A stretch of DNA of 64,000 nucleotides from Sphingopyxis chilensis (GTDB lineage Bacteria > Pseudomonadota > Alphaproteobacteria > Sphingomonadales > Sphingomonadaceae): positions 1,397,501 through 1,461,500 of the forward strand of contig NZ_CP142394.1 of NCBI RefSeq assembly GCF_035930445.1. The letters run 5' to 3'. Position numbers and translations under genes: made by a program. A model generated the notes under the pieces. It was not told where the DNA came from and did no database searches. It saw only the letters and a program-made list of their open reading frames with translations. This document shows, one piece after another, positions 10,591 to 27,376 of the stretch (position 1 is the first letter of the stretch; every line of letters begins with the position of its first letter).

Positions 10591-10612
10591 CATCAACTTT
10601 TTTCTGGGAAGC

Positions 10613-11548: not shown

Positions 11549-11583
11549 CGCGCGCCGGTGGAGCATGCTCCACCGACGCGCGG
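11549..11583 (-). terminator. Long hairpin after the SDR gene
   Basis: CGCGCG-c-CGGTGGAGCA pairs with TGCTCCACCG-a-CGCGCG, a stem of about 16 bp with one mismatch and almost no loop. On the minus strand it follows the SDR stop by 14 bases and leads into ATCTTTT, a short T tract. It probably ends the SDR transcript. Confidence 0.6.
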
Positions 11584-11597
11584 TTGAATGAAGCGAT

Positions 11598-12353: not shown

Positions 12354-12490
12354 GGTCGGTCTCCTGTGCCGTGAGTGGCCACACCGATATGCCGCGGCCG
12401 AGCCCCGAGAGGTTGCCGGCACCTCGCTTATCTTTGCCTAATTCTCCAAATCTATGGTAGCGGCTGCGCTCCTGCGCTATACAGGCAGGC

Positions 12491-13378: not shown

Positions 13379-13486
13379 CGATCCAGAGAGATGCAGTCTC
13401 TTCGACGAGATATTAGCAAGGCGCTGGTGAAGTCGTCGAGTCGTGTATCGCTTTTCGATGAGGTCGGTTTTGCGTCGTCTCGAACC

Positions 13487-13516
13487 CAAAGCTGATTGTC
13501 GGCTGCCGGCCAAAGT
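13487..13516. repeat. Degenerate copy of dispersed intergenic repeat
   Basis: The core reads CAAAGCTGATTGTCGGCTGCCGGCC. It lies in the 205-bp gap between the AraC gene and the convergent MmgE/PrpD gene; nothing else is seen there. Confidence 0.4.
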
Positions 13517-13583
13517 CCGGCGGCCGCGGAGCTTGGCTGGCGCGGCAGAACGCTGTAATCAATCGTTGGCGCGCCGTGCCGAT

Positions 13584-14954
13584 TCAGCGCCGTGAGGCCA
13601 TATTCTCGAACAACTCCCGGTAGTCGCGCTGGTGCTCAAGTCGCGCGGTAAACGCCAGAATGCGGTCTTGTACGGCTTCCGTAAAATGCCGCCCGGCCAT
13701 ACGTCTGAGCTTTTGTTCGAAATCCTTGTCGGACATCGGGTTTTCAAGTGAGCCAGGACCGCTGACGACTTCGCTTGAGATCGTCTGGCCGGAAGCAAGC
13801 GTGACCGTCACCCGGTTGGGCAGCTGCTGCGGGAACATCGCGGTGAGCACTGGATCTTCGGAGACCTTTGTCATGGACATCAGCGCCGCAGCCCTGGCGC
13901 CAGCAATCTTTGCGTCGGAATAGGTCTCGATGGTGATGTCGCCATCGATCAGCGCGCGGGCCACATTGAACGGCAAGCTATGATCGGCGGTTTCCCGGGT
14001 CTTGGGATGAAATTTCTCCGCGTCCGCGAGAACGCGGCAGTTGAATTCCGTCGTCTCGATATGAATCGCGGAAATAGCGCCGAGGTCAGGTATTCGAGGC
14101 CGCAATTCGAGGGCCGCCCATACGGCCGTGTGCAATTCGCCGTTGGTGGGGAAGCTTTTTGTCAGTGAGCGCAGGATCGCATAATCGCCGTTCTCGGGAC
14201 TGCCGAACGCATTCGTGTCCAGCGTAAACGGCCCCGAAACCTGCGAAAAGAAGCCCATTTTCCCCTCGAATATCGGCGATGGACCCGTCATTCCGTGCCC
14301 GGCGAGTTGAGCGGCAAAGATCGCGTTTCGCGCCGCGTTTGCGGCCGAGCAGCCCTTCCAGTCCGACAGCTCGCCCGAGCGAACCTGCCGCATCGCGATA
14401 TGGCCGTTGAGGGCGATGTTGATAGCTTGCGTAGTCCGGGCAACATCGAGTTTCAGAAGGCGCGACGCGGCCGCCGCGACCGCGACGGTCACATAGTTGA
14501 CCTGATCCCATCCGCGCTTGTTGAGGTTCGCTGCGTCCTGAAGACGCATCTGGATTTCATAGGCGACGACGATCGCGGCCATCAGGTCGCGACCTCGAGC
14601 GCCTTCCGCCTCCGCCAAAGCGAGGCACGCAAAAATATTGTCGCTGGGATGGCCGGGCTCGCGGCCCATATAGCCGTCATTATAGTCGAGGAACCGCACC
14701 ATTGTTCCGTTCGCGAAGGCGGCAAGGTCGGGCGTTGTGCGCAGCGTCGTCCCGAAGACACTGGAAGAGGCTGCCGGCACGGTCCGCGCCAGAGCAATAG
14801 CCGCTTTCACGGGGGCGGTATCAAAGGCGCCCAGAACGCAGGCGAGGCTGTCGACAAAACGGCGGCGGACGCATGCCAAGACGGGTTCGGGCAACGCCGC
14901 CGCGTCGAGATCGCAGGCATAGCTGGCCAGCTTCATGGCAAATGTTTCGTTCAT
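13584..14954 (-). CDS. MmgE/PrpD family protein
   Basis: A 456-residue protein with the two-part MmgE/PrpD layout: an all-helical domain (about 1-270) and an alpha/beta lid domain. Marks include RRFVDSLACVLG near the start, FLDYNDGYMGREPGHPSDN (the conserved substrate-site segment, about 88-106), ALNGHIAMRQVRSGELSDWKG in two parts, and TADHSLPFNVARAL in the lid. Members include 2-methylcitrate dehydratase, iminodisuccinate epimerase and cis-aconitate decarboxylase, all acting on di- or tricarboxylates. ATG 14954 is preferred over the adjacent TTG. It is the last gene of a minus-strand run with a tartrate-type dehydrogenase, glycerate kinase and hydroxyacid dehydrogenase. A hydro-lyase or epimerase on the cluster's carboxylate is the likely job. 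Confidence 0.9.
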   Translation of the reverse strand: MNETFAMKLASYACDLDAAALPEPVLACVRRRFVDSLACVLGAFDTAPVKAAIALARTVPAASSSVFGTTLRTTPDLAAFANGTMVRFLDYNDGYMGREPGHPSDNIFACLALAEAEGARGRDLMAAIVVAYEIQMRLQDAANLNKRGWDQVNYVTVAVAAAASRLLKLDVARTTQAINIALNGHIAMRQVRSGELSDWKGCSAANAARNAIFAAQLAGHGMTGPSPIFEGKMGFFSQVSGPFTLDTNAFGSPENGDYAILRSLTKSFPTNGELHTAVWAALELRPRIPDLGAISAIHIETTEFNCRVLADAEKFHPKTRETADHSLPFNVARALIDGDITIETYSDAKIAGARAAALMSMTKVSEDPVLTAMFPQQLPNRVTVTLASGQTISSEVVSGPGSLENPMSDKDFEQKLRRMAGRHFTEAVQDRILAFTARLEHQRDYRELFENMASRR

Positions 14955-15086
14955 CAATATTCTTTCCGCAAAGGCTGATCAGGCGAGAGGGTCGGGGGCG
15001 ATCTCAAAGTGGATCATGGGCAACCGCTTTCCGGCCGACCGGCTTACCGGTACGCAACGAAAGGGCGGTATTGGCATGCCGGACGC

Positions 15087-16163
15087 TCATGAAAGCGCAG
15101 CGACTATGGCGTCAGTGCACTCGCGAGTGTTTGCCGCGCCGCCGAGGTCGCGCGTTCGATATTGCGGCTGTGCGAGCACCTCTTCGACCGCGCGAAGGAC
15201 CGCGCTGGCGGCTTCATGTTCGCCAAGATGATCGAGCATCAGCGATGCAGACCAGATCTGGCCGACCGGATTGGCGATGCCTTTGCCCGCGATGTCTGGT
15301 GCCGAGCCGTGGACGGGCTCGAACAGCGAGGGAAAGCGCCGCTCGGGATTGATGTTCCCCGCCGGCGCGATCCCGATCGTTCCGGTGCAGGCGGGGCCGA
15401 GGTCGGACAGGATGTCGCCGAACAGATTGGACGCGACGACGACGTCGAACCAGTCGGGATGTTGGACGAAATGCGCGGTCAGAATATCGATATGATATTT
15501 GTCCCAGGCTACGTCGGGATAATGCGCCGCCATCGCTTCGACCCGTTCGTCCCAATAGGGCATGGTGATCGAAATGCCGTTCGACTTGGTCGCCGAAGTC
15601 AGATGCTTCTTTTCCCGCCGTTGCGCGAGGTCGAAGGCATATTTCAGGATCCGGTCCGTGCCTACCCGCGTCATGACCGTTTCCTGCATGACAATTTCGC
15701 GGTCAGTGTCCGGGAAGATCCTGCCGCCAATCGACGAATATTCGCCTTCGGTGTTTTCACGAACGACGTAGAAGTCGATGTCGCCCGGCTGGCGACCGGC
15801 AAGCGGGCTGGGGACGCCGGGCATCAGCTTGACCGGTCGAAGGTTGACATATTGGTCGAATTCGCGGCGAAACTGAATCAGCGAACCCCAAAGCGATACA
15901 TGATCGGGCACCGTTTCGGGCCAGCCGACGGCGCCGAAGTAGATCGCGTCATGGCCGCCGATCTGCTGCTTCCAGTCGTCCGGCATCATCCGGCCGTGCT
16001 GCAGATAATGGTCGCATGAAGCGAAGTCGAAATGATCGAAAGCGAAGCCGCAGCCGAATTTACGTTCGACGGCCTCCAGTATCCGCAGCCCCTGGGGAAC
16101 GACTTCCTTGCCGATCCCGTCGCCGGCAATCACGGCGATGCGGTGAATAGTCTTGTTCGTCAC
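15087..16163 (-). CDS. Tartrate dehydrogenase / isopropylmalate-dehydrogenase-like decarboxylating enzyme
   Basis: A 358-residue member of the beta-decarboxylating dehydrogenase family, beginning with GTG 16163 after GAGAGG. Marks are IAGDGIGKEV (start of the Rossmann-like core), FGAVGWPETVPDHVSLW, the substrate-site Arg cluster LIQFRREFDQYVNLRPVKL, VRENTEGEYSS (phosphate or NADH loop), NLFGDILSDLG with the metal-binding Asp pair, and HGSAPDIAGKGIANP (adenine loop). The 'VRENTEGEYS' loop and length match tartrate dehydrogenase/D-malate dehydrogenase (TtuC/DmlA) better than LeuB. These use NAD+ and Mn2+ or Mg2+ to oxidise, and sometimes decarboxylate, tartrate or D-malate. It is 11 bp after the kinase gene. 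Confidence 0.9.
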   Translation of the reverse strand: MTNKTIHRIAVIAGDGIGKEVVPQGLRILEAVERKFGCGFAFDHFDFASCDHYLQHGRMMPDDWKQQIGGHDAIYFGAVGWPETVPDHVSLWGSLIQFRREFDQYVNLRPVKLMPGVPSPLAGRQPGDIDFYVVRENTEGEYSSIGGRIFPDTDREIVMQETVMTRVGTDRILKYAFDLAQRREKKHLTSATKSNGISITMPYWDERVEAMAAHYPDVAWDKYHIDILTAHFVQHPDWFDVVVASNLFGDILSDLGPACTGTIGIAPAGNINPERRFPSLFEPVHGSAPDIAGKGIANPVGQIWSASLMLDHLGEHEAASAVLRAVEEVLAQPQYRTRDLGGAANTRECTDAIVAALS

Positions 16164-16174
16164 GGGAACCTCTC

Positions 16175-17425
16175 TCAGATGGGATCGATCAGGATGGCGC
16201 GGAAATCATTGACGTTGGTCAGGGTGGGGCCGGTGACGAGCAACGCATCGATCCCCGCGAAGAAGCCGTAGGCGTCATTGGCGGCGAGCGCCGAAGTCGC
16301 ATCGACGCCGCATTTCGCGGCGGCCGTGAGCGTATCGGGGCCGATGATAGCCCCCGCATTGTCCTCGCTGCCGTCGAGCCCGTCGGTGTCTGCGGCGAGC
16401 CCGCTTATCCCGGCCGCGCCCCCAAGTTCGAGCGCGAGCGCGAGCAGATATTCCGCATTGCGCCCGCCGCGCCCGCCGCCGCGCACGGTGACGCTGGTTT
16501 CTCCGCCCGACAGGAGGACGCAGGGCGCCGCCGCGATACCGTCCCCGGCGCGGATGGCCTTCGCGATCGCCGCGTGATTGCGGGCCACGTCGCGTGCTTC
16601 GCCCTCGATTGCATCGCCGAGAATGACGGGATGATAGCCGTGGTTGCGCGCCGCCTCGGCCGCCGCATCGAGAGCGTCGCGCGCGGTCGCGATCACGAAA
16701 TGCTGCGCGGCGGGCAGTGATTTCGGCGTCTCGCTTTCCGGATTCTCGAGCCAGGCGCGAACCGCCGGTGCGTCGATCCGGTAGCGGTCGAGGATCGCGA
16801 GCGCGTCATAGCGGCTGCTCGGGTCGGCGAAGGTCGGTCCCGACGCTACTTGCGCCGGATCGTCGCCCGGAATGTCCGAAATAATATAGGTGACGACGCG
16901 TGCCGGTGCGGCCGTCAGCGCAAGGCGTCCGCCCTTCACCGCCGAAATATGCTTGCGGACGACATTGATCGCGCCGATCGGCGCACCCGAACGGAGGAGC
17001 GCGCGGGTTACAGCCTGTTCGTCGTCGAGAGTGAGCGGCCCCGCGGGGGCTGCGAGGAGCGCCGATCCGCCTCCCGAGACGAGGCAGACGACGAGATCGT
17101 CGGGTCCCATTGCCTCGGCCGCGGCGAGCATGCGCGCCGTCGCTGCGCGGCCCGCATCGTCGGGCACGGGATGCGCGGCCTCGATGATCTCGATCCGCTC
17201 GCACGGGGCGCCGTGTCCGTATCGCGTTACTACCATGCCCGAAAGGGGTGCTTCCCATGCCTGATCGAAGGCGCTTGCCATCGAGGCGGCGGCTTTTCCC
17301 GCACCGAGCACCAATGTCCGACCCCGGGGCGGGTCGGGCAGGCGGCGGCCATCGAATGAGCCCGCCGGCATGGCGCGCGCAACGGCGGTATCGAACAAGT
17401 GGATCACCAGTTCGCGCGCGTCCAT
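16175..17425 (-). CDS. Glycerate 2-kinase (MOFRL family, TtuD/GckA type)
   Basis: A 416-residue protein from ATG 17425; ATG 17452 would add nine residues and overlap the upstream gene. The N-terminal domain (about 1-235) has LVLGAGKAAASMASAF, CLVSGGGSALLAAP and KHISAVKGGRLA. The C-terminal MOFRL domain has VLLSGGETSVTVRGGGRGGRN and DTDGLDGSEDNAGA. These are the signatures of the D-glycerate 2-kinase family, formerly called hydroxypyruvate reductase TtuD in Agrobacterium tartrate operons. The product, 2-phosphoglycerate, enters glycolysis. Its place beside a tartrate-type dehydrogenase mirrors the ttu locus and says that D-glycerate is an end product of this pathway. Confidence 0.92.
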   Translation of the reverse strand: MDARELVIHLFDTAVARAMPAGSFDGRRLPDPPRGRTLVLGAGKAAASMASAFDQAWEAPLSGMVVTRYGHGAPCERIEIIEAAHPVPDDAGRAATARMLAAAEAMGPDDLVVCLVSGGGSALLAAPAGPLTLDDEQAVTRALLRSGAPIGAINVVRKHISAVKGGRLALTAAPARVVTYIISDIPGDDPAQVASGPTFADPSSRYDALAILDRYRIDAPAVRAWLENPESETPKSLPAAQHFVIATARDALDAAAEAARNHGYHPVILGDAIEGEARDVARNHAAIAKAIRAGDGIAAAPCVLLSGGETSVTVRGGGRGGRNAEYLLALALELGGAAGISGLAADTDGLDGSEDNAGAIIGPDTLTAAAKCGVDATSALAANDAYGFFAGIDALLVTGPTLTNVNDFRAILIDPI

Positions 17426-17432
17426 TGCAGGA

Positions 17433-18440
17433 TCAGAGCCTGCGCCGACCATCGGCGATCACGCATTGCGACGGCGGGTCTTTGCCCGTGAGGACCGCGA
17501 CGACGCATTTCGCGGCGACCATATTGGTCCGCTCGAGCCCCTCGCGGGTCGAGGCGGCAGCGTGCGGCGTGGCGATGACATTGGGAAGTTCGATGAGGCG
17601 CTGGCTGATCGCGCGATATTCGGGATCGGCTTCGCTGACGAAGGTGTCGAGACCGGCGCCGGCGATCTGGCCGGCCAGTAGTGCATCGAGCAGCGCCGCG
17701 TCGTCGACCAGCCCGCCGCGCGCGGCGTTGATCAGGACGGCGCCCGGCTTCATTCGCGCCAGCGCATCGGCATCGATCAGGAAACGCGTCTCGGGCGTAA
17801 GCGGCGCGTGGAGCGATACATAGTCGCTTTCGCGCAACAAGGTGTCGAGGTCCGTAAATTCGACGCCGGTGCGTCCGGAAAAATCGGGGTCGGGCGTCGG
17901 CGTTGCCACCAGGATGCGCGTCTCGAACCCGCCGAGGCGCTGGACGAGGCTGCGCCCGATCCGGCCCAATCCGACGATGCCTACGGTCTTTCGATACAGA
18001 TCCCCTCCGGTCAGGATTGACCAGTCCCCGCCGATCATCTTGGCCTGGGTCTCACGGAAGCGGTGCCCGACCGCGAGCATCAAGGCGATCGTATGGTCGG
18101 CGACCGAGGCGTCGTTACCGCCCGCGGCGATGCACACCACTTTTCCGAACTCCTTTGCTGCCGCGACATCGACGCGCTCATAGCCGACGCCCCGGCGCGA
18201 CACGATTTGCAGCAGGGGCAGGGCGGCCAGCAATTCGCGCGTCACGCGCGCGTGGCCGACGATCCATCCGGCCGCGCCGTCCAGCATCGCGACAAGTTGG
18301 TCGTGCGACAGATTGCCGTCGGCCTGACCGGCCGGCAAATCGGCCTGCACGACCTCGCAACCGGCGCCTTCAAGGAGCCTGATCGCGGCCTCGTCGAAGA
18401 AGCGTTGCGTGACGATGACGCGAGCCCGGTCAGGCTTCAT
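17433..18440 (-). CDS. D-isomer-specific 2-hydroxyacid dehydrogenase
   Basis: A 335-residue protein. ATG 18440 is chosen because AGGAGGGG lies about seven bases upstream. The order is: N-terminal substrate-binding part with GHARVTRELLAALP, then RRGVGYERVD, the Rossmann motif GIVGLGRIGRSLVQRL (about 143-158), the catalytic Arg in NAARGGLVDD, the Glu in DTFVSEADPEY and the His in VIATPHAAAST. This matches phosphoglycerate dehydrogenase/hydroxypyruvate reductase relatives without an ACT domain. In this cluster a glyoxylate, hydroxypyruvate or tartronate semialdehyde reductase making D-glycerate would fit, which is inference. It is the first gene of the minus-strand operon. Confidence 0.92.
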   Translation of the reverse strand: MKPDRARVIVTQRFFDEAAIRLLEGAGCEVVQADLPAGQADGNLSHDQLVAMLDGAAGWIVGHARVTRELLAALPLLQIVSRRGVGYERVDVAAAKEFGKVVCIAAGGNDASVADHTIALMLAVGHRFRETQAKMIGGDWSILTGGDLYRKTVGIVGLGRIGRSLVQRLGGFETRILVATPTPDPDFSGRTGVEFTDLDTLLRESDYVSLHAPLTPETRFLIDADALARMKPGAVLINAARGGLVDDAALLDALLAGQIAGAGLDTFVSEADPEYRAISQRLIELPNVIATPHAAASTREGLERTNMVAAKCVVAVLTGKDPPSQCVIADGRRRL

Positions 18441-18538
18441 GATGATCCCCTCCTGTCGGTACAATCGTCGTCTTGAACCGGTGGCCGATCAGCCTCTTCG
18501 GTGACGAACTCGAATTTTGCGAATCAATCATACCAAGG

Positions 18539-18550
18539 ATTGAATTCAAT
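18539..18550. promoter_or_regulatory. Palindromic GntR operator candidate, divergent region
   Basis: A perfect 12-bp palindrome ATTGAATTCAAT lies between the divergent 2-hydroxyacid dehydrogenase (start 18440) and gntR (start 18600). A copy with one change, ATTGCATTCAAT, is in the promoter of the TonB-receptor operon (19427-19438). The size and TTG-N4-CAA symmetry fit FCD-subfamily GntR operators. Confidence 0.65.
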
Positions 18551-18599
18551 TTGCAACATTTTGGTGGCGCCATGCGCCGGCCGGGGCTAATCAGCGCAT

Positions 18600-19352
18600 A
18601 TGCCCCAGCGCAAAGCCAAGCCATCCGCCGTTCCAGAAGAGCCGGAAACGCTGTTCACCTCGACCGTGCTCACGCAGATCCGCGAGTTGATCGTCACCGG
18701 CGAGCTGCCACCGGGCACGCATCTCGCCGCCGAGCCGATCGCAAGCCGCCTCGGCGTGTCGCGGACGCCGGTGCGCAACGCCTTTTCGGTTCTGTTGGCC
18801 GAAGGATTGCTCGAGCATTCTGTCAATCGCGGCTTCTCGGTGCGCGAGATTCCGCTCCGCGATATATTGGGTGCTATCGACATGCGCGCGGTGATCGAAG
18901 CGCGCGGCTGCGGCATGTCGATCGAATATGGCTGGTCGCCCGAGGAGCTTGCTACCCTCGACGAACGGATCGCGGCCGGCCGCGAGATCGTCGACCGTGG
19001 CGACTGGTCGGCCGAAATCGAGCGACACTGGTATGAGATCAACCGCGACATTCATGCCTGGATTGTGCGGGTCGGGCGGAATCCTTCCATCCGCAGCGCC
19101 ATGCGGATGACGCTTATCTACCCGATTTTCGGCGATGTCTGCCGGTTGTGCCCGTCGGTGTCGCGCTATGTCCCGCTGCGCAATCGTCAGATTCCGCCCA
19201 CCGTGCCGGAGCATGTCGCCGAGTCGCAGGCCGAGCATGAGGCGATCGCCGATGCGATTCGCTCGGACGATGCGGAGGCAGCCGAACGGCTGATGCACCA
19301 GCATGTTATCGCAGTGAAGCACCGCGTGCTCCTCGCCGCCACGCGTCGCTAA
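18600..19352 (+). CDS. GntR-family regulator, FCD (FadR) subfamily
   Basis: A 250-residue protein. The N-terminal winged helix spans about 20-85, with QIRELIVTGELPPGTHLA, SRLGVSRTPVRNAFSVLLAEG and GFSVREI. The C-terminal helical FCD effector domain has MRAVIEARGCGMSIEYGW, a metal-site pattern of Asp/His residues (NRDIHAWIV, HEAIADAIRSDDAEAAERL) and MHQHVIAVK. FCD regulators usually bind carboxylate effectors and repress catabolic genes. It sits between the two arms of the catabolic cluster, and matching palindromes lie in both control regions, so it very probably regulates both arms and itself. Confidence 0.93.
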   Translation: MPQRKAKPSAVPEEPETLFTSTVLTQIRELIVTGELPPGTHLAAEPIASRLGVSRTPVRNAFSVLLAEGLLEHSVNRGFSVREIPLRDILGAIDMRAVIEARGCGMSIEYGWSPEELATLDERIAAGREIVDRGDWSAEIERHWYEINRDIHAWIVRVGRNPSIRSAMRMTLIYPIFGDVCRLCPSVSRYVPLRNRQIPPTVPEHVAESQAEHEAIADAIRSDDAEAAERLMHQHVIAVKHRVLLAATRR

Positions 19353-19419
19353 TTCCCGCTGATTCCGTCCGAATCCGGAACGTGCATTCGCGCGTCCTCC
19401 GTATATTGAATCCACAGAT

Positions 19420-19448
19420 TTGACATATTGCATTCAATCGTCGATTAG
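19420..19448 (+). promoter_or_regulatory. Promoter with embedded GntR operator for the TonB-receptor operon
   Basis: TTGACA at 19420-19425 is a consensus -35. Seventeen bases later GATTAG (19443-19448) is a weak -10. The operator-like ATTGCATTCAAT (19427-19438) fills the spacer, where a bound repressor would block polymerase. A further half-site ATTGAAT is at 19405-19411. The receptor start codon is 46 bases downstream. Confidence 0.55.
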
Positions 19449-19494
19449 AACGGCGACGGGCCGCGACAGACGGCCGCTCGAAGTGGAGGATGCT

Positions 19495-21660
19495 ATGCGA
19501 GGTGGAATCTTGTTTTGCGGCGCCGCCGTTCTGGCGCTTTCGAATGCGCATGCAGCGCGGGCGCAAGAGGGGGCAGGTGCGCCCGATAGCGTCGAAGCGG
19601 CCGACGATGCGATCATCGTGACCGCGCAGCGACGGAGCCAGAGTCTGCAGGACGTGCCGGTGACGGTCACCGTATTCGGCGCAGAGGAAATCGAGCAGGC
19701 GCGAATCCAGCAGGTGAGCGATGTCGTGACGCGCACCCCGGGCCTCAGTTTCGACGCTTTTCCTGCGAGCCAGCCGCGCTTGGCAGTTCGCGGCATCGGA
19801 TCGTCGGACAAGGGCGCAGCCGGGGATCCAAGCGCCGCGGTGTTTCTCGATGAGATTTATCTCGGGCGCCCTGCGGCGGTAGCGTTCGACGCCTTCGACG
19901 TCGAGCGGATCGAGGTGCTCAAGGGGCCGCAGGGCACGCTGTTCGGGCGCAACGTCGTGGGCGGCGCGATCAACGTCGTGACCAAGCGCCCGGAACTGGG
20001 CGGCTTCGATGCGGCGGCCGAATTCACCTATGGCAATTACGACCGGCTCGACGGCGCGGGCTTCATCAATCTGCCGTTCGGCGGCGGGGGCGGGGCGATC
20101 CGGGTCAGTGGTGCCTATCGCTCGCACGGCGGCTATGTTTATAATCCGGTGATCGACCGCCGCGTCGACGATCAGGACACGCTGAGCGGGCGTTTCCAGT
20201 TTCTCGCCGAACCCACCGACAATTTGCGCGTGCATTTCACGCTCGACGGAACCCGCGACCGCGCGACCGGCCCCGCCAAATATATCTTCGATGTCGACCC
20301 CGATGACCCCTTGTCGGCCGCTTATACGGTCGACCGCGATCCCAAGCGCACCTACGGATCGTTCGCAGGCTATCAGGATCGCGACACCATCGGGGTGCGC
20401 GGCGAAATTGCCTGGGACTTGAGCTTCGCGACGCTGTCGTTCCTCGGCTCTTTCCGTGATCTCGATTATGGAACCCGCTATGATTTCGACGGCAGCAACC
20501 CGACGCGATCGCTGGTCGACATCAGTGGCGGCGAGGACGAGCGTTCGGAATTGTCGAGCGAGGAAGTGCGGCTGTCGTCGTTGCCCGGCTCGGGGATCGA
20601 TTGGGTCGTGGGCTTCTATCGCTACCGGCAAAAGACGATCCGGTCCGACATCTTCAATCTCGACAGCGAGTTCGTAGCGCCGATCCCGCTCACCGACATT
20701 TACGACCAGGATGCGCGGCTCGACAGCATTGCGGTCTTCGGCGATGCGACGATCCCGCTCGGCGACAAATTCAGCATCATCGGCGGCGTGCGCTATTCGC
20801 GCGACGACAAGACGTACCGGGTCACCAACATGCGCGGGATGGTGCCGCTGCGCGGCGACGAGTTCTTCGACGTCACCACGCAGAAGAGCTGGGACGACGT
20901 AACCTATCGCGGCGGCCTCAATTTCAAGCCGAACGACGACCATCTCCTCTACGCGATGGTGTCGCGCGGTTTTAAAAGCGGTGGGTTCCAGGATACGCCG
21001 GCAAGCGCGATCGATGCCGCGACCGCATTCGATCCGGAAACCGCGGTGCAGTATGAAATCGGCCAGAAGAGCCGCTTCTTCGACGGACGGCTGATCTGGA
21101 ACAACACGCTCTATTGGCTCGATTACAAGAATCTCCAGACGCGCCAATCGCAGCCCGATGGTTCGATCATCACCAACAACGCAGGGAAGGCGACGATCAA
21201 GGGATTTGAGACGCAGTTGACCGCGCGGTTGACGGGCGGACTGAATCTCTCGGCCGCCTACGCTTATACCGATGCGCGCTTCGACGAGTTCGACGATGAG
21301 GGGATCGACCGGTCGGGCAACCGCATCTCGCGCACGCCGAAGCACAAGCTGACACTGTCACCGTCCTACACTGCAGCGCTCGGTGGGAGCACCGAACTGA
21401 CGGTGGCGGTCGACTATCAATATGAAAGCCTGATCTACGACGACAACAGTAACGAGGGGCCCGAAATCCGGCCGGCGACGCATTTCGTCGACGCGCGCGT
21501 CGTTCTGGCCGGGATCGGCGATCGTTGGACCTTGTCGCTGTGGGGCAAGAATCTGACCAACGAGCGGACGCGAACGCACCAGACGCTTTTCCTTGGCGCC
21601 AACTTCGGAACCTACAACCCGCCGCGTACCTACGGAGCGACGCTCGGCTGGCGCTATTGA
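19495..21660 (+). CDS. TonB-dependent outer-membrane receptor (carboxylate cluster)
   Basis: A 721-residue receptor starting at ATG 19495 with GGAGGA five bases upstream. A signal peptide (ending HAARAQ) is followed by DDAIIVTAQRRSQSLQDVPV, the TonB-box and plug entry. The plug domain (about 50-170) contains LAVRGIGSS and VLKGPQGTLFGRNVVGGAINVVTKRP, split across two conserved blocks. The rest is a 22-strand barrel, ending in the aromatic terminus GATLGWRY. It resembles the sphingomonad FecA/CirA-like receptors used for organic substrates as well as siderophores. Here it heads an operon with DUF1446, DUF4387 and CitMHS genes under a GntR operator, so uptake of the cluster's carboxylate (or its metal chelate) is inferred. 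Confidence 0.92.
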   Translation: MRGGILFCGAAVLALSNAHAARAQEGAGAPDSVEAADDAIIVTAQRRSQSLQDVPVTVTVFGAEEIEQARIQQVSDVVTRTPGLSFDAFPASQPRLAVRGIGSSDKGAAGDPSAAVFLDEIYLGRPAAVAFDAFDVERIEVLKGPQGTLFGRNVVGGAINVVTKRPELGGFDAAAEFTYGNYDRLDGAGFINLPFGGGGGAIRVSGAYRSHGGYVYNPVIDRRVDDQDTLSGRFQFLAEPTDNLRVHFTLDGTRDRATGPAKYIFDVDPDDPLSAAYTVDRDPKRTYGSFAGYQDRDTIGVRGEIAWDLSFATLSFLGSFRDLDYGTRYDFDGSNPTRSLVDISGGEDERSELSSEEVRLSSLPGSGIDWVVGFYRYRQKTIRSDIFNLDSEFVAPIPLTDIYDQDARLDSIAVFGDATIPLGDKFSIIGGVRYSRDDKTYRVTNMRGMVPLRGDEFFDVTTQKSWDDVTYRGGLNFKPNDDHLLYAMVSRGFKSGGFQDTPASAIDAATAFDPETAVQYEIGQKSRFFDGRLIWNNTLYWLDYKNLQTRQSQPDGSIITNNAGKATIKGFETQLTARLTGGLNLSAAYAYTDARFDEFDDEGIDRSGNRISRTPKHKLTLSPSYTAALGGSTELTVAVDYQYESLIYDDNSNEGPEIRPATHFVDARVVLAGIGDRWTLSLWGKNLTNERTRTHQTLFLGANFGTYNPPRTYGATLGWRY

Positions 21661-21703
21661 TTGCCGCCGGGCCACGACGATTTGAGATGAAGGAGCGTAA
21701 AGC

Positions 21704-23143
21704 GTGACAGAACAGCCGCCAGCCGCCGACGCGTTCGCCGGCCCGATCAAGGTGCTCGTGCCGTGCGGCTCGCTCGGCGCGGGGGTGCGCGAAAGCGAGA
21801 TCGCCTACGGCATAGCGGAGGGTGCGCATGTGATCGCGTCGGATGCCGGGTCGACCGATAGCGGCGCTGCCTATCTCGCGCTCGGCAAGTCGAAGAACAG
21901 TCGCGGCGCGGTCAAGCGTGACCTCGAGATTTTGATGCGGGCGCAGGCCGAGCATGGCATTCCGATCATCATCGGAACCTCGGGGCAGGCGGGGGGGGAC
22001 CTCAACCTTCAATGGACGCGCGAGATCGTCGAGGAGGTCGCGGCCGAGCTCGGAACGGCGCCGAAGATTGCGCTCATTCATTGCGAACAGGACAAGGCGA
22101 CGATCAAGCGGCTCAACGCCGCAGGCCGTATCCAACCCCTGCCGCCGCTCGGCCCGCTGGAGGACGAGGTCATCGACCAGTGCGAACATATCGTCGCCGC
22201 GCTCGGCGTCGAACATTTTATCGCCGCGCTCGACGGCGGCGCCGACATCATCCTCGGCGGACGGTCGACCGATACCGCGGTGCTCGCTTGCTATCCGATC
22301 TGGAAGGGAGCGCCGTGGGGGCCGGCGTGGCACGCGGGCAAGACGGGCGAATGCGGCGTCCAATGTTCGGTCAATCCGACGCTGGGTTCGGGCGTCATGC
22401 TGACCGTCAAGGCCGACGGCTTCGAGGTCGCGCCACTGAGCGACGACAATCGTTGTTCTGTCCATAGCGTGTCTGCGCATATGCTGTACGAGAATACCGA
22501 TCCCTTCCGGCTTGCCGAACCCGGCGGCGTGCTCGACGTAACGCGCGCACGCTACACGCAGTTGGATGAGCGAACCGTCTCGGTAAGCGGATCGGGATGG
22601 GAGCCAGGCCCCTATTCGATGAAGCTCGAAGGCGCGAGCGCGGGACAGTATCAGACGATGATGCTGGTCGGTATCCGGAATCCGGAAGTGCTGAGCGACA
22701 TCGAGAATTTTCACGATAAGCTGCTGGCCGCGCTATATGAGCGAACCCGCAAGTCCTTCCCGGCCGAGGCGCTTGGCGAATTCCATATTTCGCTTCGCAT
22801 GTACGGATGGAACGGCATCGACGGCAAGCCGGTGCCACCGGATAGGCCGCCCCCGCCCGAGATCGGCATGGTCTTCGTCGCCACTGCCGATACGCAGGAA
22901 CTGGCCAATGCGATCGCGCATGCGTGCAACCCCTATTTCTTCCATTATCCCAATGTGATGAACAAGGAAATTCCGAGTTATGGCTTCATGCTGAGCCCGG
23001 CCGACGTGCCGTGCGGCCAGTTCTTCGAATTCCGGCTGAACCACATCGTTGCGCTCGACGATCCGTTCGAACTGGTCCGGATCGAATATGTCGATCTGGC
23101 ATCGGGGTCGGCTGCAGCACAAAAGGAGGCGGTCCATGGTTAA
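21704..23143 (+). CDS. AtuA/DUF1446 family protein
   Basis: A 479-residue protein starting with GTG 21704 after AAGGAG. Family marks: VLVPCGSLGAGVRESEIAYG at the start, SDAGSTDSGAAYLALGKS, IIGTSGQAGGDLNLQW, GGADIILGGRSTDTAV and GKTGECGVQCSV. It matches the acyclic terpene utilisation AtuA/DUF1446 family. AtuA itself is needed for citronellol and geraniol growth in Pseudomonas, but no terpene gene (atuC/F, carboxylase) is present here, so that name should not imply function. Its stop overlaps the DUF4387 start by eight bases, so the two products probably form one complex. The conserved Cys pair and Gly-rich blocks suggest an enzyme; the reaction is unknown. Confidence 0.88.
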   Translation: MTEQPPAADAFAGPIKVLVPCGSLGAGVRESEIAYGIAEGAHVIASDAGSTDSGAAYLALGKSKNSRGAVKRDLEILMRAQAEHGIPIIIGTSGQAGGDLNLQWTREIVEEVAAELGTAPKIALIHCEQDKATIKRLNAAGRIQPLPPLGPLEDEVIDQCEHIVAALGVEHFIAALDGGADIILGGRSTDTAVLACYPIWKGAPWGPAWHAGKTGECGVQCSVNPTLGSGVMLTVKADGFEVAPLSDDNRCSVHSVSAHMLYENTDPFRLAEPGGVLDVTRARYTQLDERTVSVSGSGWEPGPYSMKLEGASAGQYQTMMLVGIRNPEVLSDIENFHDKLLAALYERTRKSFPAEALGEFHISLRMYGWNGIDGKPVPPDRPPPPEIGMVFVATADTQELANAIAHACNPYFFHYPNVMNKEIPSYGFMLSPADVPCGQFFEFRLNHIVALDDPFELVRIEYVDLASGSAAAQKEAVHG

Positions 23144-23447
23144 GCTTCGCGACGTCTGCCACGAGATCCGGTCGAAGAACGCCGGCCCCTTCTGGGTCAC
23201 CTTCGATATATTCTTCGACGGGCCGGCCAGTTTTACGCGCTATCATACCGATCCCGCGCTGTCGGCCGACAGCTTCGCGCGCCTCTACGGCGCCGATGCG
23301 AGCATGGTGAAGCGTATTCCGGTCGACGATCTTTCGATGATCAAGATTTCCTATCCGCGAACGTTCCCGCAGGGCGGCATGGTCGAACGCGACATGCACT
23401 CGGGGCAGCAATATGTGCCGCTGCTCGACGTCGAACTGGCCGACTGA
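23136..23447 (+). CDS. DUF4387 family protein, partner of the AtuA-like protein
   Basis: A 103-residue protein overlapping the end of the DUF1446 gene by eight bases; AAGGAGGCGG precedes ATG 23136. It has the family segments RSKNAGPFWVTFDIFF, FARLYGADASMVKRI and FPQGGMVERDMHSGQQYVPLL. DUF4387 occurs next to, or fused to the C-terminus of, DUF1446 proteins, where it forms the small ferredoxin-like partner domain. Tight overlap implies equal synthesis. Nothing in it is an obvious catalytic motif apart from the conserved D-x-H-S-G-Q near the end. Confidence 0.88.
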   Translation: MVKLRDVCHEIRSKNAGPFWVTFDIFFDGPASFTRYHTDPALSADSFARLYGADASMVKRIPVDDLSMIKISYPRTFPQGGMVERDMHSGQQYVPLLDVELAD

Positions 23448-23484
23448 CGACGTCGCCTGAGGACGGCGCCGGGATGCGAATGGC

Positions 23485-23505
23485 AGGCCGGATCGACTCC
23501 GGCCT
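23485..23505 (+). terminator. Short hairpin between DUF4387 and CitMHS genes
   Basis: AGGCCGGA and TCCGGCCT form a perfect 8-bp stem with a five-base loop, followed by no T tract. It is 38 bases after the DUF4387 stop and could attenuate or stabilise the transcript. A TTGACA at 23512-23517 is a possible -35 for the transporter gene, but no matching -10 is clear. Confidence 0.4.
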
Positions 23506-23560
23506 CCGCGGTTGACATTCTGCAGCACTCACGGCGACCTTATTCCGAAGGATATTCACG

Positions 23561-24859
23561 ATGACATTGGCGCTGCTGGGTTTCGCGACCGTCCTGCTGT
23601 TCATCGTCCTCATCATGATCAAACGGATGTCGGCGGCCGCCGCGTTGATCGCGGTTCCCATCGTTGGCGGCCTTCTCGCCGGCGCCGGGCCCGGCCTCGG
23701 GGACATGATGCTCAAGGGCATCGTCGACGTGGCGCCAATTGCGACGATGCTGGCGTTCGCGGTCCTCTATTTCGCAGTGATGATGGATTCGGGACTTTTC
23801 GACCCTTTGGTCAACCGCATCCTTGCTGTCGTGGGCGACGATCCCGTTCGCATTGCGATCGGAACGATGGCGCTGTCCTCGCTCGTCTCGCTGGACGGCG
23901 ACGGCACGACCACCGCCTTGATCGTTATTACCTCGATGCTTCCGCTCTATCGCGCGATCGGAATGAATCCCCTGATCCTCGCGATGCTGCTTGGCAGCAG
24001 CAACGCCATCATGAACCTGCTTCCCTGGGGAGGCCCGTCGGCGCGCGCTGCCGCCGCGGTCAAGGTCGACCTCGTCCACGAGGTGTTCCTGCCGTTGGTG
24101 CCAGCCATGCTCATTGCTCTCGCGGCGCTCGCAGCACTGGCGTGGTGGTTCGGAACGCGCGAACGGGCGCGGCTGGGGTGGAAAGCGGGCGCGCGCGCGA
24201 CGCCGGTACCTGCCGTCGCGGCGGACCGCCCCGAGCGGCGTCCGCGCTTGTTCTGGTTCAATCTGCTGCTGACCGCCGCGCTGATGGCCGGAATGGTCAC
24301 CGGAATCGCACCCTTACCGGTGCTGATTATGGGGGCGCTCGCCGTGGCGCTCACCGTCAATTATCCGAAACTCTCCGATCAGCGCGAAAGGATTGCGACG
24401 CACGCCGACAATGTGGTCATGGTGGTGGTGCTGATCTTCGCGGCCGGCGCTTTTACCGGCATCCTGGGCGGCACCGGCATGACCGATGCGATGGCGCGTG
24501 CGCTGCTCGCCGGCGTGCCCGACGCACTCGGAGTCTATCTCGCGCCGATCACCGCCTTGCTTGCCTTGCCACTGACGTTCGTCATGTCGAACGACGCCTA
24601 TTATTTTGGCGTGGTACCGGTGCTGGCACAGGCCGGCGTCGCCCACGGAATTCCGGCTGAGGCGATTGCGCGCGCATCGCTGATGGGTGGTCCCGTCCAT
24701 TCACTGAGCCCGCTGCTCGCTCCCGTCTATCTGGCGTGCGGATTGCTTGGGGTCGATGTCGCAGATGCGCAGCGGTTCGCGCTAAAATATGCGGTTGGGA
24801 TAAGCCTCATCATGACCTTGGCCGCGATCATCACGGGCGCCATTCCGTACGCCGCGTAG
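23561..24859 (+). CDS. CitMHS family citrate-type transporter
   Basis: A 432-residue integral membrane protein with 11-12 hydrophobic segments. It has the CitMHS-type first half (MLAFAVLYFAVMMDSGLFDP, LSSLVSLDGDGTTTALIV) and the re-entrant NLLPWGGPSARAAAA segment, and a mirrored second half with AAGAFTGILGGTGMTDA and MSNDAYYFGVVPVLAQAG. The family (CitM/CitH of Bacillus) moves citrate as a complex with Mg2+, Ca2+ or other divalent metals, driven by protons. The GTTTAL and NDAYYFG blocks of the citrate site are present. It is the last gene of the plus-strand arm and provides inner-membrane uptake for the regulon. Confidence 0.92.
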   Translation: MTLALLGFATVLLFIVLIMIKRMSAAAALIAVPIVGGLLAGAGPGLGDMMLKGIVDVAPIATMLAFAVLYFAVMMDSGLFDPLVNRILAVVGDDPVRIAIGTMALSSLVSLDGDGTTTALIVITSMLPLYRAIGMNPLILAMLLGSSNAIMNLLPWGGPSARAAAAVKVDLVHEVFLPLVPAMLIALAALAALAWWFGTRERARLGWKAGARATPVPAVAADRPERRPRLFWFNLLLTAALMAGMVTGIAPLPVLIMGALAVALTVNYPKLSDQRERIATHADNVVMVVVLIFAAGAFTGILGGTGMTDAMARALLAGVPDALGVYLAPITALLALPLTFVMSNDAYYFGVVPVLAQAGVAHGIPAEAIARASLMGGPVHSLSPLLAPVYLACGLLGVDVADAQRFALKYAVGISLIMTLAAIITGAIPYAA

Positions 24860-24925
24860 AGCTGTCCGAATAGTTGACGGACGTGGACCACTGGGCGTCC
24901 GCTATTCGCGCTCGGCGCGTGGCAA

Positions 24926-24953
24926 CCTGACTGTCAGCAACCGGCCAGCAGCC
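24926..24953. repeat. Degenerate copy of dispersed intergenic repeat
   Basis: The core reads ACTGTCAGCAACCGGCC with GCCGGC just after it. It lies in the 101-bp gap between the CitMHS gene and the convergent TonB receptor. Confidence 0.4.
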
Positions 24954-24960
24954 GGCAAGG

Positions 24961-27285
24961 TTAAAATCTGCCTTCCAGAGTCAGCCCGATCATTCGGGGC
25001 TCACCGAACAGCGCCTGCATCCGGCCGGCATTCTCATATTGATAGTCGTAATATTCGTCGTCGAAGATGTTCGTCGCGACCAAGTATGTGCCGAAATAGT
25101 CATTTGCGTATCCAACCTTGGCGTTGACCAAGGTGCGCGAGGGCACATTTCGGCCGCCGCTCTGGTCGCGAATGTCCTGGAACTGCGGACCGCGATAATT
25201 GACGTTGAGGTTGGCATTGAAACCCGACGGATGGCGCCAGTCGAGCCCCGCCGCCCAGGTCCAGCGCGGCGCGTTGGCGAATTCGAAGCCCGACAGGTCG
25301 AGCACCTGCCCATTGCCCGTTTCGAAATCGAGGAACTTGCTGTTCGCATAGCCGACCGAGCCATAGACGTTCAGCCGGTCAGTGACGTCGAAATCGCTCT
25401 CGACCTCGAAACCCCATACGCGCGAGCTGCCCGCATTCTGCGTCTCATAATCATAGACATTGTCGGACAGCTGGACATAGACCTGCTGGTCCTTCCATTC
25501 GATGTAAAAGGCGTTGGCGTTGAAGGTCAGCCGCCGGTCGAGCCATTGGGTGCGCAGCGACAGCTCGTAATTCCACGTATATTCGGGATCATAGACATGC
25601 GTTGTCGCGCGGCCGGGGTTCACCCCGCTGCCACCCGAGCGATAACCGCGCTGGACGATCGCGCTGACCGTCTTGTCGGGCGCGAATTCCCACGAAATTC
25701 CGCCCTTGGGCAGGAACGCCTTATAGGTTGTAGTCGATTCGGGCCCGGCGCTGTTCGCGTCGGCGACGGTCTGGAGCAGCAGGCCGTTGATCTGCTGGAG
25801 GATCAGGCCGAGCGTCGGATCGGGGGCGGCCGCCGGGTCGGGCAGCACCGTGTTGAGGATGACGACATTGTCGTTCGCGACCTTCTGCCGCTCCTGATCG
25901 TAGCGGAAGCCCGCGAGCAATTTCAGCCCCGGTGCGACCTCCCAGCTCGCGTCGCCGAACAGGGCCATCGTTTCGATGTCGACCGCATAGCGCTGGTCCG
26001 ACGAGATGAAGACGCGCGGCGGGTAATAGCTGCGCGCCAACTGGGCGAGCCCCAGCGCCTGATCGGCGGGCAGCCCGGACTGGGTTTGGAGCAACGCCGC
26101 GACCTGCGCCGTCAGGCCCAGGTCGACGTCGGGATCGAGGCTGAACGTGCTGTTCGAATCCGACCGCGGGTTTTTCAGCCGCGAATAAAAGCCGCCGATC
26201 AGACCCTGCAGCGGGCCGGTATCGAAGTTCAGCCGCATTTCCTGGCTGAAGATCTTCTGGTCGGTCAAGAAATCGCCATAGGCCTCGTCCTCGGGGCGCA
26301 ATTCGCCGTCATAGGTCGAAAAGGTCTTGAGGTGGTTGTAGGTGCTCACCGACGACATGGTGAAGACATGGCCGAGCGGCAATGCCACGTCGAAGGTGAA
26401 CAGGTCGGAGCTCGTCTTCGTATAGGTCGGACGGTTCGCCTCGACGGTGCGATCGTCCCAGGCGCCGGGTTCATCACTGAACACATAGCCGCGCCCGTCG
26501 TTGCCGAAATGGCGGTCATAGAGATAGGACGCCTTGATCTGGATGCCGTCGGCGCCCGCGGGGGTAAACAGCAATTTGGCGCGCACGACCTCGCTGTTCG
26601 TCTTCGCATAATGGCCGCCGCTCAGCCGGTTCCTGATCAGCCCGTCGCCGCGCGCCAGCTCGCCCGCGACGCGGAACGCCAGCACATCGCCCGCGATCGG
26701 CCCGCCGATCGCGGCGGCGAGGCGATATTCGCCGTCGGCGTCGGTGATCATCGCGCGCGCTTTTCCGCGCCAGTCGAAGCTGGGGTCGGCGGTCTTGAGG
26801 ATGATCGCGCCCGCGAGCGCGTTGCGCCCCTGCAGGGTCGACTGCGGCCCGCGCAGGATCTCGGCCTGCTCGAGATCCCAAAGGTCGAGCGGCCCGCCGC
26901 CCGCCGCCTCGGTCGGCAGCGGCGATCCGTCGAGATAGATGGTCGCAAGGTTGCCGAAGCCATAGCCCGAGACATTCTTGTTCGAAATGCCGCGGATGTT
27001 GAAACCCGATTTGGCGAAGGTAGATGACAGGTTCGCGGTGCGGTCGATCAGGTCATAGACGCTGATCAGATTCTGCCGGTCGATCTCTTCGGCGGTGAAG
27101 ACCTTCACGCTTTCGGGCGTGTCCTGCAACGTCCGGTCGAACTTCATGCCGGTGACGACGATCTCGTGGCCCGTCCCGACATCGCCCGCTTCGGCGGCGG
27201 CATCCATCGCGGCTTCCTCGGCGTGCAGCGGCATCGCCGCGCTCGCCAGCATCAGGGCCAGAACCGGCCGGATCGTCTTGGTCAT
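24961..27285 (-). CDS. TonB-dependent receptor, probably siderophore uptake
   Basis: A 774-residue receptor. The signal peptide ends near LHAEE; the plug begins HEIVVTGMKFDRTLQDTPES and contains FNIRGISNKNVSGYG and ILRGPQSTLQGRNALAGAI. The barrel ends with MIGLTLEGRF, a proper terminal Phe. 'VVTG(M/T)KFDRTLQDTPESV' is typical of the FhuA/FpvA-like siderophore branch, unlike the receptor at 19495. A Fur-like site lies in the upstream gap, and the divergent genes encode a PepSY membrane protein of the kind linked to siderophore iron reduction. Role in ferric-siderophore import is therefore likely; the specific ligand is not known. Confidence 0.92.
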   Translation of the reverse strand: MTKTIRPVLALMLASAAMPLHAEEAAMDAAAEAGDVGTGHEIVVTGMKFDRTLQDTPESVKVFTAEEIDRQNLISVYDLIDRTANLSSTFAKSGFNIRGISNKNVSGYGFGNLATIYLDGSPLPTEAAGGGPLDLWDLEQAEILRGPQSTLQGRNALAGAIILKTADPSFDWRGKARAMITDADGEYRLAAAIGGPIAGDVLAFRVAGELARGDGLIRNRLSGGHYAKTNSEVVRAKLLFTPAGADGIQIKASYLYDRHFGNDGRGYVFSDEPGAWDDRTVEANRPTYTKTSSDLFTFDVALPLGHVFTMSSVSTYNHLKTFSTYDGELRPEDEAYGDFLTDQKIFSQEMRLNFDTGPLQGLIGGFYSRLKNPRSDSNSTFSLDPDVDLGLTAQVAALLQTQSGLPADQALGLAQLARSYYPPRVFISSDQRYAVDIETMALFGDASWEVAPGLKLLAGFRYDQERQKVANDNVVILNTVLPDPAAAPDPTLGLILQQINGLLLQTVADANSAGPESTTTYKAFLPKGGISWEFAPDKTVSAIVQRGYRSGGSGVNPGRATTHVYDPEYTWNYELSLRTQWLDRRLTFNANAFYIEWKDQQVYVQLSDNVYDYETQNAGSSRVWGFEVESDFDVTDRLNVYGSVGYANSKFLDFETGNGQVLDLSGFEFANAPRWTWAAGLDWRHPSGFNANLNVNYRGPQFQDIRDQSGGRNVPSRTLVNAKVGYANDYFGTYLVATNIFDDEYYDYQYENAGRMQALFGEPRMIGLTLEGRF

Positions 27286-27328
27286 TGTCTTTAGCTCCCC
27301 GCTTGGCTAACGACGGGGCCGCTATTGC

Positions 27329-27349: not shown

Positions 27350-27376
27350 GTTAGGCAGAAGGACATAGGGGGACAT

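What the first reader, a model, noticed from the sequence alone, without database searches (positions are those of the whole stretch)
13584..24859. GntR-controlled catabolic regulon for an unidentified hydroxy-carboxylate
Two divergent arms flank one FCD-type GntR gene. The minus arm encodes 2-hydroxyacid dehydrogenase, D-glycerate 2-kinase, tartrate/D-malate-type dehydrogenase and an MmgE/PrpD hydro-lyase. The plus arm encodes an outer-membrane TonB receptor, AtuA/DUF1446, DUF4387 and a CitMHS transporter. The kinase and tartrate-type dehydrogenase recall the ttu tartrate pathway, but PrpD and CitMHS point to a tricarboxylate or methylated dicarboxylate. A full path from import to 2-phosphoglycerate can be drawn, yet the substrate and the DUF1446/DUF4387 step are unknown. 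I know of no described pathway with exactly this gene set.
Basis: partly seen in the sequence, partly recalled or inferred. Interest (0 to 1): 0.75.

Follow-up and report, generated by a model that had tools for sequence, protein, structure and literature searches.

The report
Cluster for degrading a citrate-like acid
A bacterium carries a jointly controlled set of genes that probably imports a citrate-like acid (hydroxycitrate is the best guess), splits it with a little-known two-part enzyme and feeds the pieces into central metabolism; the searches made here turned up no described pathway with this gene set.

Summary
The genes are as listed, and 13584-24859 behaves as one unit. ATTGNATTCAAT lies before both arms and nowhere else in the 3.95 Mb genome; relaxed to ATTGNATNCAAT it recurs, 34 of 35 times between genes, in 17 of 19 loci with a related GntR. 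A congeneric genome carries this block, 92% identical, with other flanks. 'DUF1446/DUF4387' is not blank: both match the chains of PDB 9erq/9evf named citramalate lyase CmlA/CmlB, so they probably cleave R-C(OH)(COOH)-CH2-COOH into a 2-oxo acid and acetate. In 78 related loci the glycerate kinase never occurs without the tartrate-type dehydrogenase TTC (0 of 20); TTC (25 loci) and LeuC (21) never share a locus; the 2-hydroxyacid dehydrogenase accompanies both (24 of 25; 21 of 21). TTC and LeuC swap at least 7 times on the lyase tree. One intermediate, meso-tartrate, would explain this, and hence a 2-hydroxylated citrate as substrate: hydroxycitrate -> oxaloglycolate + acetate -> meso-tartrate -> D-glycerate -> 2-phosphoglycerate. 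The lyase assignment is strong (about 0.8); the substrate is inferred (about 0.45) and untested.

The parts
13584..14954 (-). MmgE/PrpD family protein (optional in relatives); perhaps a dehydratase of a 2-substituted citrate or an epimerase
   Evidence: PF03972+PF19305; closest solved relatives 2-methylcitrate dehydratases (91.7 bits) and, nearly level, IDS epimerase (87.2 bits); N-terminal motif RFLDYND...EPGHPSDN resembles 2-methylcitrate dehydratase (RWLDFND...EWGHPSDN) rather than IDS epimerase (HAIDFDD), but the C-terminal part matches IDS epimerase well (PGSxExPMxD)
15087..16163 (-). TTC: tartrate dehydrogenase/decarboxylase family (recalled substrates: tartrates, meso-tartrate, D-malate)
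   Evidence: TIGR02089 580 bits over cut-off 470; PDB 3flk tartrate dehydrogenase E=5e-163; 205 positions invariant in 23 rows
16175..17452 (-). GCK: class II (MOFRL) D-glycerate 2-kinase family
   Evidence: PF13660+PF05161; in relatives only in loci that also have TTC, 20 of 20
17433..18440 (-). HADH: D-2-hydroxyacid dehydrogenase, phosphoglycerate-dehydrogenase-like
   Evidence: PF00389+PF02826; best solved relatives phosphoglycerate dehydrogenases; R241, E270, H293 and the VGHA and RRGVG motifs kept in at least 95% of 56 rows; no position is fixed (90% or more) differently in TTC-locus and LeuC-locus rows
18539..18550 (.). operator candidate 1, ATTGAATTCAAT (perfect palindrome), between gntR and the minus arm
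   Evidence: ATTGAATCCAAT in G800
18600..19352 (+). GntR-family regulator, FCD subfamily
   Evidence: PF00392 and PF07729 over cut-off
19427..19438 (.). operator candidate 2, ATTGCATTCAAT, just before the TonB gene
   Evidence: ATTGCATCCAAT in G800
19495..21660 (+). TonB-dependent outer-membrane receptor
   Evidence: PF07715+PF00593
21704..23143 (+). AtuA/DUF1446: CmlA-like large subunit of a citramalate-lyase-type enzyme
   Evidence: PF07287; PDB 9erq_A CmlA E=2e-70, profile of 16 relatives E=5e-92; Q95/Q220 in 65 of 82 AtuA rows
23136..23447 (+). DUF4387: CmlB-like small subunit, start overlapping the end of the CmlA-like gene
   Evidence: PF14330; PDB 9erq_B CmlB E=3e-11; start read
23561..24859 (+). 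CitMHS-family metal-citrate:proton symporter
   Evidence: TIGR00784 492 bits over cut-off 260; CitMHS in 58 of 78 related loci

Best explanation
One GntR-controlled catabolic unit for a 2-hydroxylated citrate, most likely hydroxycitrate (free, or as lactone or ester). TonB receptor and CitMHS import it. The CmlA/CmlB-like pair cleaves it to oxaloglycolate and acetate (shown: homology of both subunits to the pair named citramalate lyase; inferred: this substrate). The D-2-hydroxyacid dehydrogenase reduces oxaloglycolate; from a (2S)-hydroxycitrate that gives (2R,3S)- = meso-tartrate (inferred). TTC turns meso-tartrate into D-glycerate and CO2 and the class II kinase makes 2-phosphoglycerate (family knowledge, TTC part recalled). 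In other bacteria a LeuCD-type hydro-lyase stands in place of TTC and kinase, probably giving oxaloacetate (inferred). PrpD handles another stereoisomer or a side route (inferred). GntR binds the two ATTGNATTCAAT sites and switches both arms together (inferred from conserved sites).
For: Both lyase subunits match PDB 9erq/9evf CmlA and CmlB. Of 78 loci: GCK without TTC 0 of 20; TTC and LeuC together 0 (25 and 21 loci); HADH with 24 of 25 TTC (the exception, L077, is a deletion remnant), 21 of 21 LeuC, 20 of 20 GCK. At least 7 TTC/LeuC changes on the lyase tree (47 labelled rows), and no HADH position is fixed differently in the two contexts, so both modules seem to take the same intermediate; GCK requires that it yields glycerate. 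Six of six Pseudomonas/Stutzerimonas genomes without LeuCD in the locus hold that LeuCD type elsewhere (LeuC 76-79% identity; their second LeuC 56-57%; one of the six matches, in G005, spans a TGA). Transporters: CitMHS in 58 of 78 loci, 2HCT or TctC in some others. Operator: unique in the genome, conserved in relatives. The block keeps together at a different place in G800. Esterases, amidohydrolase and HydAB genes in some loci suit a lactone or ester precursor.
Against: No activity, growth or binding data. No paper on CmlA/CmlB was found, so its substrate rests on deposited names. Five LeuC loci (L025, L026, L027, L055, L078) have a sugar-type MFS_2 transporter and no CitMHS within the stretch. 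Hydroxycitrate is recalled as a plant acid; marine hosts (Alloalcanivorax, Hyphomonas, Colwellia) are hard to fit, and the listings showed no report of bacterial growth on it. Five loci carry a fatty-acid-CoA-ligase-type gene and 13 a lipase-type gene, which plain hydroxycitrate does not explain. Three HADH loci (L017, L020, L023) lack TTC and LeuC in the stretch, and their genomes lack the close LeuC type (TTC was not sought in those genomes). TTC and LeuC loci differ in host group, so the exclusion is partly kinship. Oxaloglycolate can enolise, which would blur the stereochemical argument.
Confidence: 0.45

Rival explanations
1. Itatartarate (4-hydroxycitramalate, the opened form of fungal 2-hydroxyparaconate): the lyase gives hydroxypyruvate + acetate, HADH reduces it to D-glycerate, the kinase makes 2-phosphoglycerate.
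For: Differs from citramalate, the substrate in the name of CmlAB, by one OH; HADH and kinase fit directly; itatartarate and its lactone are fungal products and a bacterial lactonase is described (PMC9875883, passages).
Against: Leaves TTC and LeuCD without a role; predicts kinase without TTC, seen in 0 of 20 kinase loci, and kinase with HADH generally, but 36 of 56 HADH loci lack the kinase in the stretch.
Confidence: 0.15
2. 2-Alkylcitrate or 2-methylcitrate: the lyase gives acetate + 3-alkyloxaloacetate (or a longer acid + oxaloacetate); HADH makes 3-alkylmalate; TTC or LeuCD continue as in leucine-type chemistry.
For: PrpD motif like 2-methylcitrate dehydratase; fatty-acid-CoA-ligase-type genes in 5 of 78 loci, lipase-type genes in 13, DUF1302 in 4; a second lyase pair of another type (T95/S220) in L004, L010, L011.
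Against: No role for D-glycerate 2-kinase, present in 20 of 25 TTC loci.
Confidence: 0.15
3. An ordinary tartrate-utilisation operon of the ttu type: CitMHS imports tartrate, TTC and kinase degrade it, the rest is accessory.
For: TTC and class II kinase are the ttu pair (A. vitis passage in PMC2063504).
Against: 53 of 78 loci with the lyase pair have no TTC (the loci were chosen by the lyase and some are cut short); transporter and regulator are not of the ttu type as recalled; no pyruvate kinase gene in the cluster.
Confidence: 0.05
4. The two arms are separately controlled neighbours.
For: Gaps of about 130 bases before PrpD and 113 before CitMHS could hold further promoters. Two of 19 related GntR loci (L028, L048) lack the site, and in L041 it lies only inside a gene.
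Against: Same palindrome before both arms, unique in the genome, conserved in relatives; the arms keep together in G800.
Confidence: 0.06

Closest known systems
CmlA/CmlB citramalate lyase (PDB 9erq, 9evf)
   Same: Both subunits homologous and adjacent; D47, D52, R187, D190, H210, K213, E216, C217, H259, Y262 and K307 of the window protein are identical in the printed alignment with CmlA
   Different: Distant (241 bits over about 440 residues); Q95 and Q220, typical of the main clade, are other residues in the printed CmlA row; genomic neighbours point to a larger, hydroxylated substrate
ttu tartrate operon of Agrobacterium vitis
   Same: Tartrate dehydrogenase plus class II glycerate kinase
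   Different: Here with lyase, HADH, PrpD, TonB receptor, CitMHS and GntR; no ttu-type transporter or pyruvate kinase in the cluster (ttu gene list recalled)
2-methylcitrate dehydratase PrpD / prp operon
   Same: MmgE/PrpD family and N-terminal active-site motif
   Different: Far below curated PrpD cut-offs; no prpB- or prpC-like gene in the cluster
MmgE/PrpD (S)-(R)-methylsuccinate isomerase (PMC12290011, passages seen)
   Same: A PrpD-family protein as helper in a branched-acid pathway; the window protein also matches the related IDS epimerase in its C-terminal part
   Different: N-terminal motif of the window protein is of the dehydratase type; different partners
Itaconate degradation Ict-Ich-Ccl (PMC9875883, PMC12290011, passages seen)
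   Same: Branched acid cleaved to a C3 oxo acid and a C2 unit
   Different: That route uses CoA esters; the window cluster has no CoA transferase or citramalyl-CoA lyase gene

Membership tests
CmlAB citramalate lyase | A-subunit homology (AtuA/DUF1446) | tested here: met
   9erq_A E=2e-70, profile 5e-92
CmlAB citramalate lyase | adjacent B subunit (DUF4387) | tested here: met
   9erq_B E=3e-11, overlapping gene
CmlAB citramalate lyase | cleaves citramalate to pyruvate and acetate | not testable with these tools
   needs enzyme assay
ttu tartrate operon | tartrate dehydrogenase + class II glycerate kinase | tested here: met
ttu tartrate operon | pyruvate kinase and MFS-type tartrate transporter in the operon (recalled definition) | tested here: not met
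   the nine genes of 13584-24859 are assigned and none is one
2-methylcitrate dehydratase (PrpD) | score over the curated cut-off | tested here: not met
   206/950, 143/575, 115/458 bits
CitMHS transporter | TIGR00784 over cut-off | tested here: met
   492 against 260 bits
GntR/FCD regulator | GntR HTH and FCD domain over cut-off | tested here: met
GntR/FCD regulator | binds the shared palindrome | not testable with these tools
   site conservation only

The most novel reading that the evidence does not exclude
An undescribed pathway for hydroxycitrate-type acids, spread patchily through Pseudomonadota: a two-subunit lyase without an acyl-carrier or CoA-transferase gene in the window cluster makes oxaloglycolate and acetate, a D-specific reductase makes meso-tartrate, and two interchangeable exits (TTC + glycerate kinase, or a LeuCD-type meso-tartrate dehydratase) finish it.
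Probability: 0.4. Interest if true: 0.8.

Novelty: new variant of a known kind. Interest (0 to 1): 0.68.

Why it matters
It gives a chemical role to a DUF1446/DUF4387 neighbourhood: the AtuA protein has no NCBIfam match (DUF4387 was not scanned there), and relatives are sometimes labelled 3-methylaspartate ammonia-lyase (PMC4682846 says 'for unknown reason'). It predicts a lyase substrate, a use for tartrate dehydrogenase outside tartrate uptake, and a new LeuCD activity, all testable with purified enzymes.

Tried and rejected
Literature: DUF1446/DUF4387 gave 7 papers, of which one, PMC4682846, was opened and has one relevant legend; citramalate lyase since 2018 (33), citramalate with cmlA or AtuA (39) and 9ERQ/9EVF/CmlAB (49) listed no paper on CmlAB; the listings of the hydroxycitrate searches showed no bacterial catabolic route (85 held 2,368 papers, 12 listed, terms too broad). 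A first gene caller by ORF length was dropped because antisense ORFs displaced real genes; from then on genes are called by codon scores, and the presence table uses tblastn. The CS-like proteins beside some loci were first taken as condensing enzymes; an HTH domain, a weak citrate-synthase match and an altered active-site region (the last point judged by eye against recalled motifs) make regulators likelier. To enlarge the sample, 10 stretches were fetched: 6 were already in the set, 3 new ones (L111, L116, L117) have no HADH, TTC or LeuC in the stretch, and 1 is the G800 block; four further stretches (in G906 twice, G820, G801) were asked for and then not fetched. An independent sample of TTC and LeuC loci was therefore not obtained. 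Of the 78 loci, 76 gave a lyase sequence for the tree; L049 and L050 gave no called genes and were only scored by tblastn. LeuD alone was found in L043 (short contig), so LeuD is in 22 loci and LeuC in 21.
Full report
What is there. Nine genes fill 13584-24859. Minus strand: 2-hydroxyacid dehydrogenase (HADH), class II D-glycerate kinase (GCK), tartrate dehydrogenase (TTC), MmgE/PrpD. Plus strand: GntR/FCD regulator, TonB receptor, AtuA (DUF1446), DUF4387, CitMHS. Beyond them lie an AraC regulator (12491-13378 +), an SDR dehydrogenase (11598-12422 -) and, on the right, another TonB receptor (24961-27285 -). The host is probably a Sphingopyxis: the closest named relative of the AtuA gene, an 89% partial match, is in S. 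italica (L077), which seems to be the same-genus genome G762.

One unit. In a genome of the same genus (G800) window 13507-24948 is collinear at 92% DNA identity; of the window's left flank (9500-13506) only a 71% patch is found there, elsewhere, and the right flank (24972-29339) lies about 1.9 Mb away. The block keeps together in different surroundings. In G762 only 15094-15712 and 22542-24846 remain, abutting; what lies between is missing. Among 80 genomes of the genus 7 match the AtuA protein at E<=1e-80, but only the window's own and G800 have it full length at over 90%. Hits to AtuA relatives of any kind are 17 of 385 in the class and 12 of 398 in the phylum at E<=1e-80, and 8 of 396 in the order at E<=1e-120. 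The cluster is rare and patchy.

One regulon. ATTGAATTCAAT (18539-18550) lies between gntR and the minus arm and ATTGCATTCAAT (19427-19438) before the TonB gene. ATTGNATTCAAT occurs at these two places only in 3.95 Mb; its backwards control occurs nowhere. The pattern was read off the window, so the test is in relatives: ATTGNATNCAAT with at most one mismatch occurs 35 times in 19 loci with a related GntR (369 kb; 34 intergenic although 11% of that DNA is intergenic; 17 of 19 loci), against 14 times in 59 other loci (1,139 kb; 9 intergenic). Five permuted patterns gave 0, 11, 1, 5 and 0 in the GntR loci and 2, 21, 3, 11 and 1 in the others; the 11 (10 intergenic) belong to AATGNATNCATT, which shares most letters with the motif. 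In the listing (18 loci, 34 sites) most sites stand before TonB, AtuA, CitMHS/GntR, HADH, TTC or LysR/HydB genes; four have no called gene start in reach and one lies inside a gene (L041); L028 and L048 have none. Binding itself is untested.

The DUF pair. A profile of 16 AtuA proteins finds PDB 9erq_A, 'AtuA family protein / citramalate lyase subunit A (cmlA)', at E=5e-92; the window protein alone at 2e-70; DUF4387 finds 9erq_B, cmlB, at 3e-11. So the pair is most likely a lyase that splits a 3-hydroxy-3-carboxy acid into a 2-oxo acid and acetate. An earlier paper (PMC4682846; passages seen) noted the DUF1446 gene beside methylaspartate ammonia-lyase in glutamate fermentation clusters and called the fate of citramalate there unclear. 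No paper on CmlA/CmlB was found; that the enzyme cleaves citramalate rests on the entry's name.

Which substrate. 78 loci with AtuA relatives were fetched from named genomes, genes called, families named, and presence scored by tblastn in stretches of up to 10 kb on each side, some cut short by contig ends. Being chosen by AtuA, they cannot show how constant AtuA itself is. DUF4387 77, CitMHS 58, HADH 56, TTC 25, GCK 20, LeuC 21, PrpD 20. GCK without TTC: 0 of 20. TTC with LeuC: 0. HADH with TTC 24 of 25 (the exception is the remnant L077), with LeuC 21 of 21. Among the 56 HADH loci (24 TTC, 21 LeuC) a hypergeometric chance of no overlap is 1e-7, though the loci are not independent. On the AtuA tree at least 7 changes between TTC and LeuC are needed in 47 labelled rows. 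The 11 HADH loci with neither: six are Pseudomonas/Stutzerimonas whose genomes carry LeuCD of this type elsewhere (LeuC 76-79%; their other LeuC is 56-57%; 6 of 6, one spanning a TGA), two lie on short contigs or near their ends (L034, L072; not checked further), and three (L017, L020, L023) have no close LeuC (58, 59 and 57% at best). No HADH position is fixed differently in the two contexts. So TTC+GCK and LeuCD look like two exits from one intermediate that HADH supplies.

Reasoning to hydroxycitrate (inference). TTC and LeuCD families act on (2R,3S)-malates with a substituent at C3 (recalled family knowledge). The kinase requires glycerate, so the substituent is OH and the intermediate is tartrate; TTC enzymes are recalled to convert meso-tartrate to D-glycerate (PMC3333776, passage has tartrate to oxaloglycolate). 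Working back, HADH makes the tartrate from oxaloglycolate, and a CmlAB-type lyase makes oxaloglycolate from 2-hydroxycitrate with release of acetate. Natural hydroxycitrates are recalled as 2S; R-specific reduction of the resulting keto acid gives (2R,3S)- = meso-tartrate. Phosphoglycerate dehydrogenase, the nearest kind of solved HADH relative, binds L-tartrate and D-malate as substrate analogues (PMC5732821, passages). Class II kinases characterised so far form 2-phosphoglycerate (PMC2063504, passages). Transporters mostly fit: CitMHS in 58 of 78 loci; of the 20 without it, L024, L068 and L049 have 2HCT, L020, L022 and L023 TctC, but L025, L026, L027, L055 and L078 have an MFS_2 protein, and nine have none of these in the stretch.

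PrpD. It is optional (20 of 78). MmgE/PrpD proteins can be dehydratases, decarboxylases or epimerases; one is a proven methylsuccinate isomerase (PMC12290011, passages). Here the N-terminal motif resembles 2-methylcitrate dehydratase, whose substrate is nearly isosteric with hydroxycitrate, while the C-terminal part resembles IDS epimerase; a second stereoisomer or a side route is likely.

What does not fit. Fatty-acid-CoA-ligase-type genes (L009, L012, L025, L020, L022), lipase-type genes (13 loci) and DUF1302/DUF1329 genes suggest a more lipophilic precursor in some hosts, perhaps esters or 4-alkyl relatives. Marine hosts and the MFS_2 loci are unexplained. A basal AtuA clade (L061, L063, L065, L066, L067, L070) sits with CitMHS but without HADH, TTC or LeuC and has T95/L220 instead of Q95/Q220. 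Q95/Q220 occur in 65 of 82 lyase rows (54 in HADH loci with the window, 11 in loci without HADH in the stretch) and may mark the hydroxylated substrate, but without a model this is a guess.

Verdict. The unknown step can be named as a citramalate-lyase-type cleavage with good support (about 0.8); hydroxycitrate as substrate is the best reading at about 0.45.

Noticed in passing
window 1-44900: The genome that the tool calls same-species (G757) shows only short, scattered matches to this stretch (only the best candidates were scored): the region looks strain-variable.
   Followed up: partly
window 3600-3711: 112 bases identical to a place in G757; a stretch around it recurs at 99% at 504585-504700 of the own genome; no tRNA found in the window.
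   Followed up: partly
L077 / G762: Sphingopyxis italica (L077, probably the same genome as G762) keeps only two abutting remnants of the cluster; window 15713-22541 has no counterpart between them.
   Followed up: partly
L005 and 23 other loci: Proteins like an HTH_17 domain fused to a citrate-synthase-like domain beside the lyase genes (24 of 78 loci by tblastn; domains shown for one; alignment): possibly regulators that sense a citrate-like acid with an enzyme fold.
   Followed up: partly
L004, L010, L011: A second AtuA-DUF4387 pair of another type (T95/S220) in the same gene group: two different cleavages in one pathway?
   Followed up: partly
L061, L063, L065, L066, L067, L070: CitMHS + AtuA + DUF4387 without HADH, TTC or LeuC in the stretch: a candidate simple citrate- or citramalate-type lyase unit.
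   Followed up: no
L017, L019: A sodium/calcium-exchanger-type gene beside the cluster (Pfam shown for L017; L019 by clustering), which would suit uptake of metal-citrate-like complexes.
   Followed up: no
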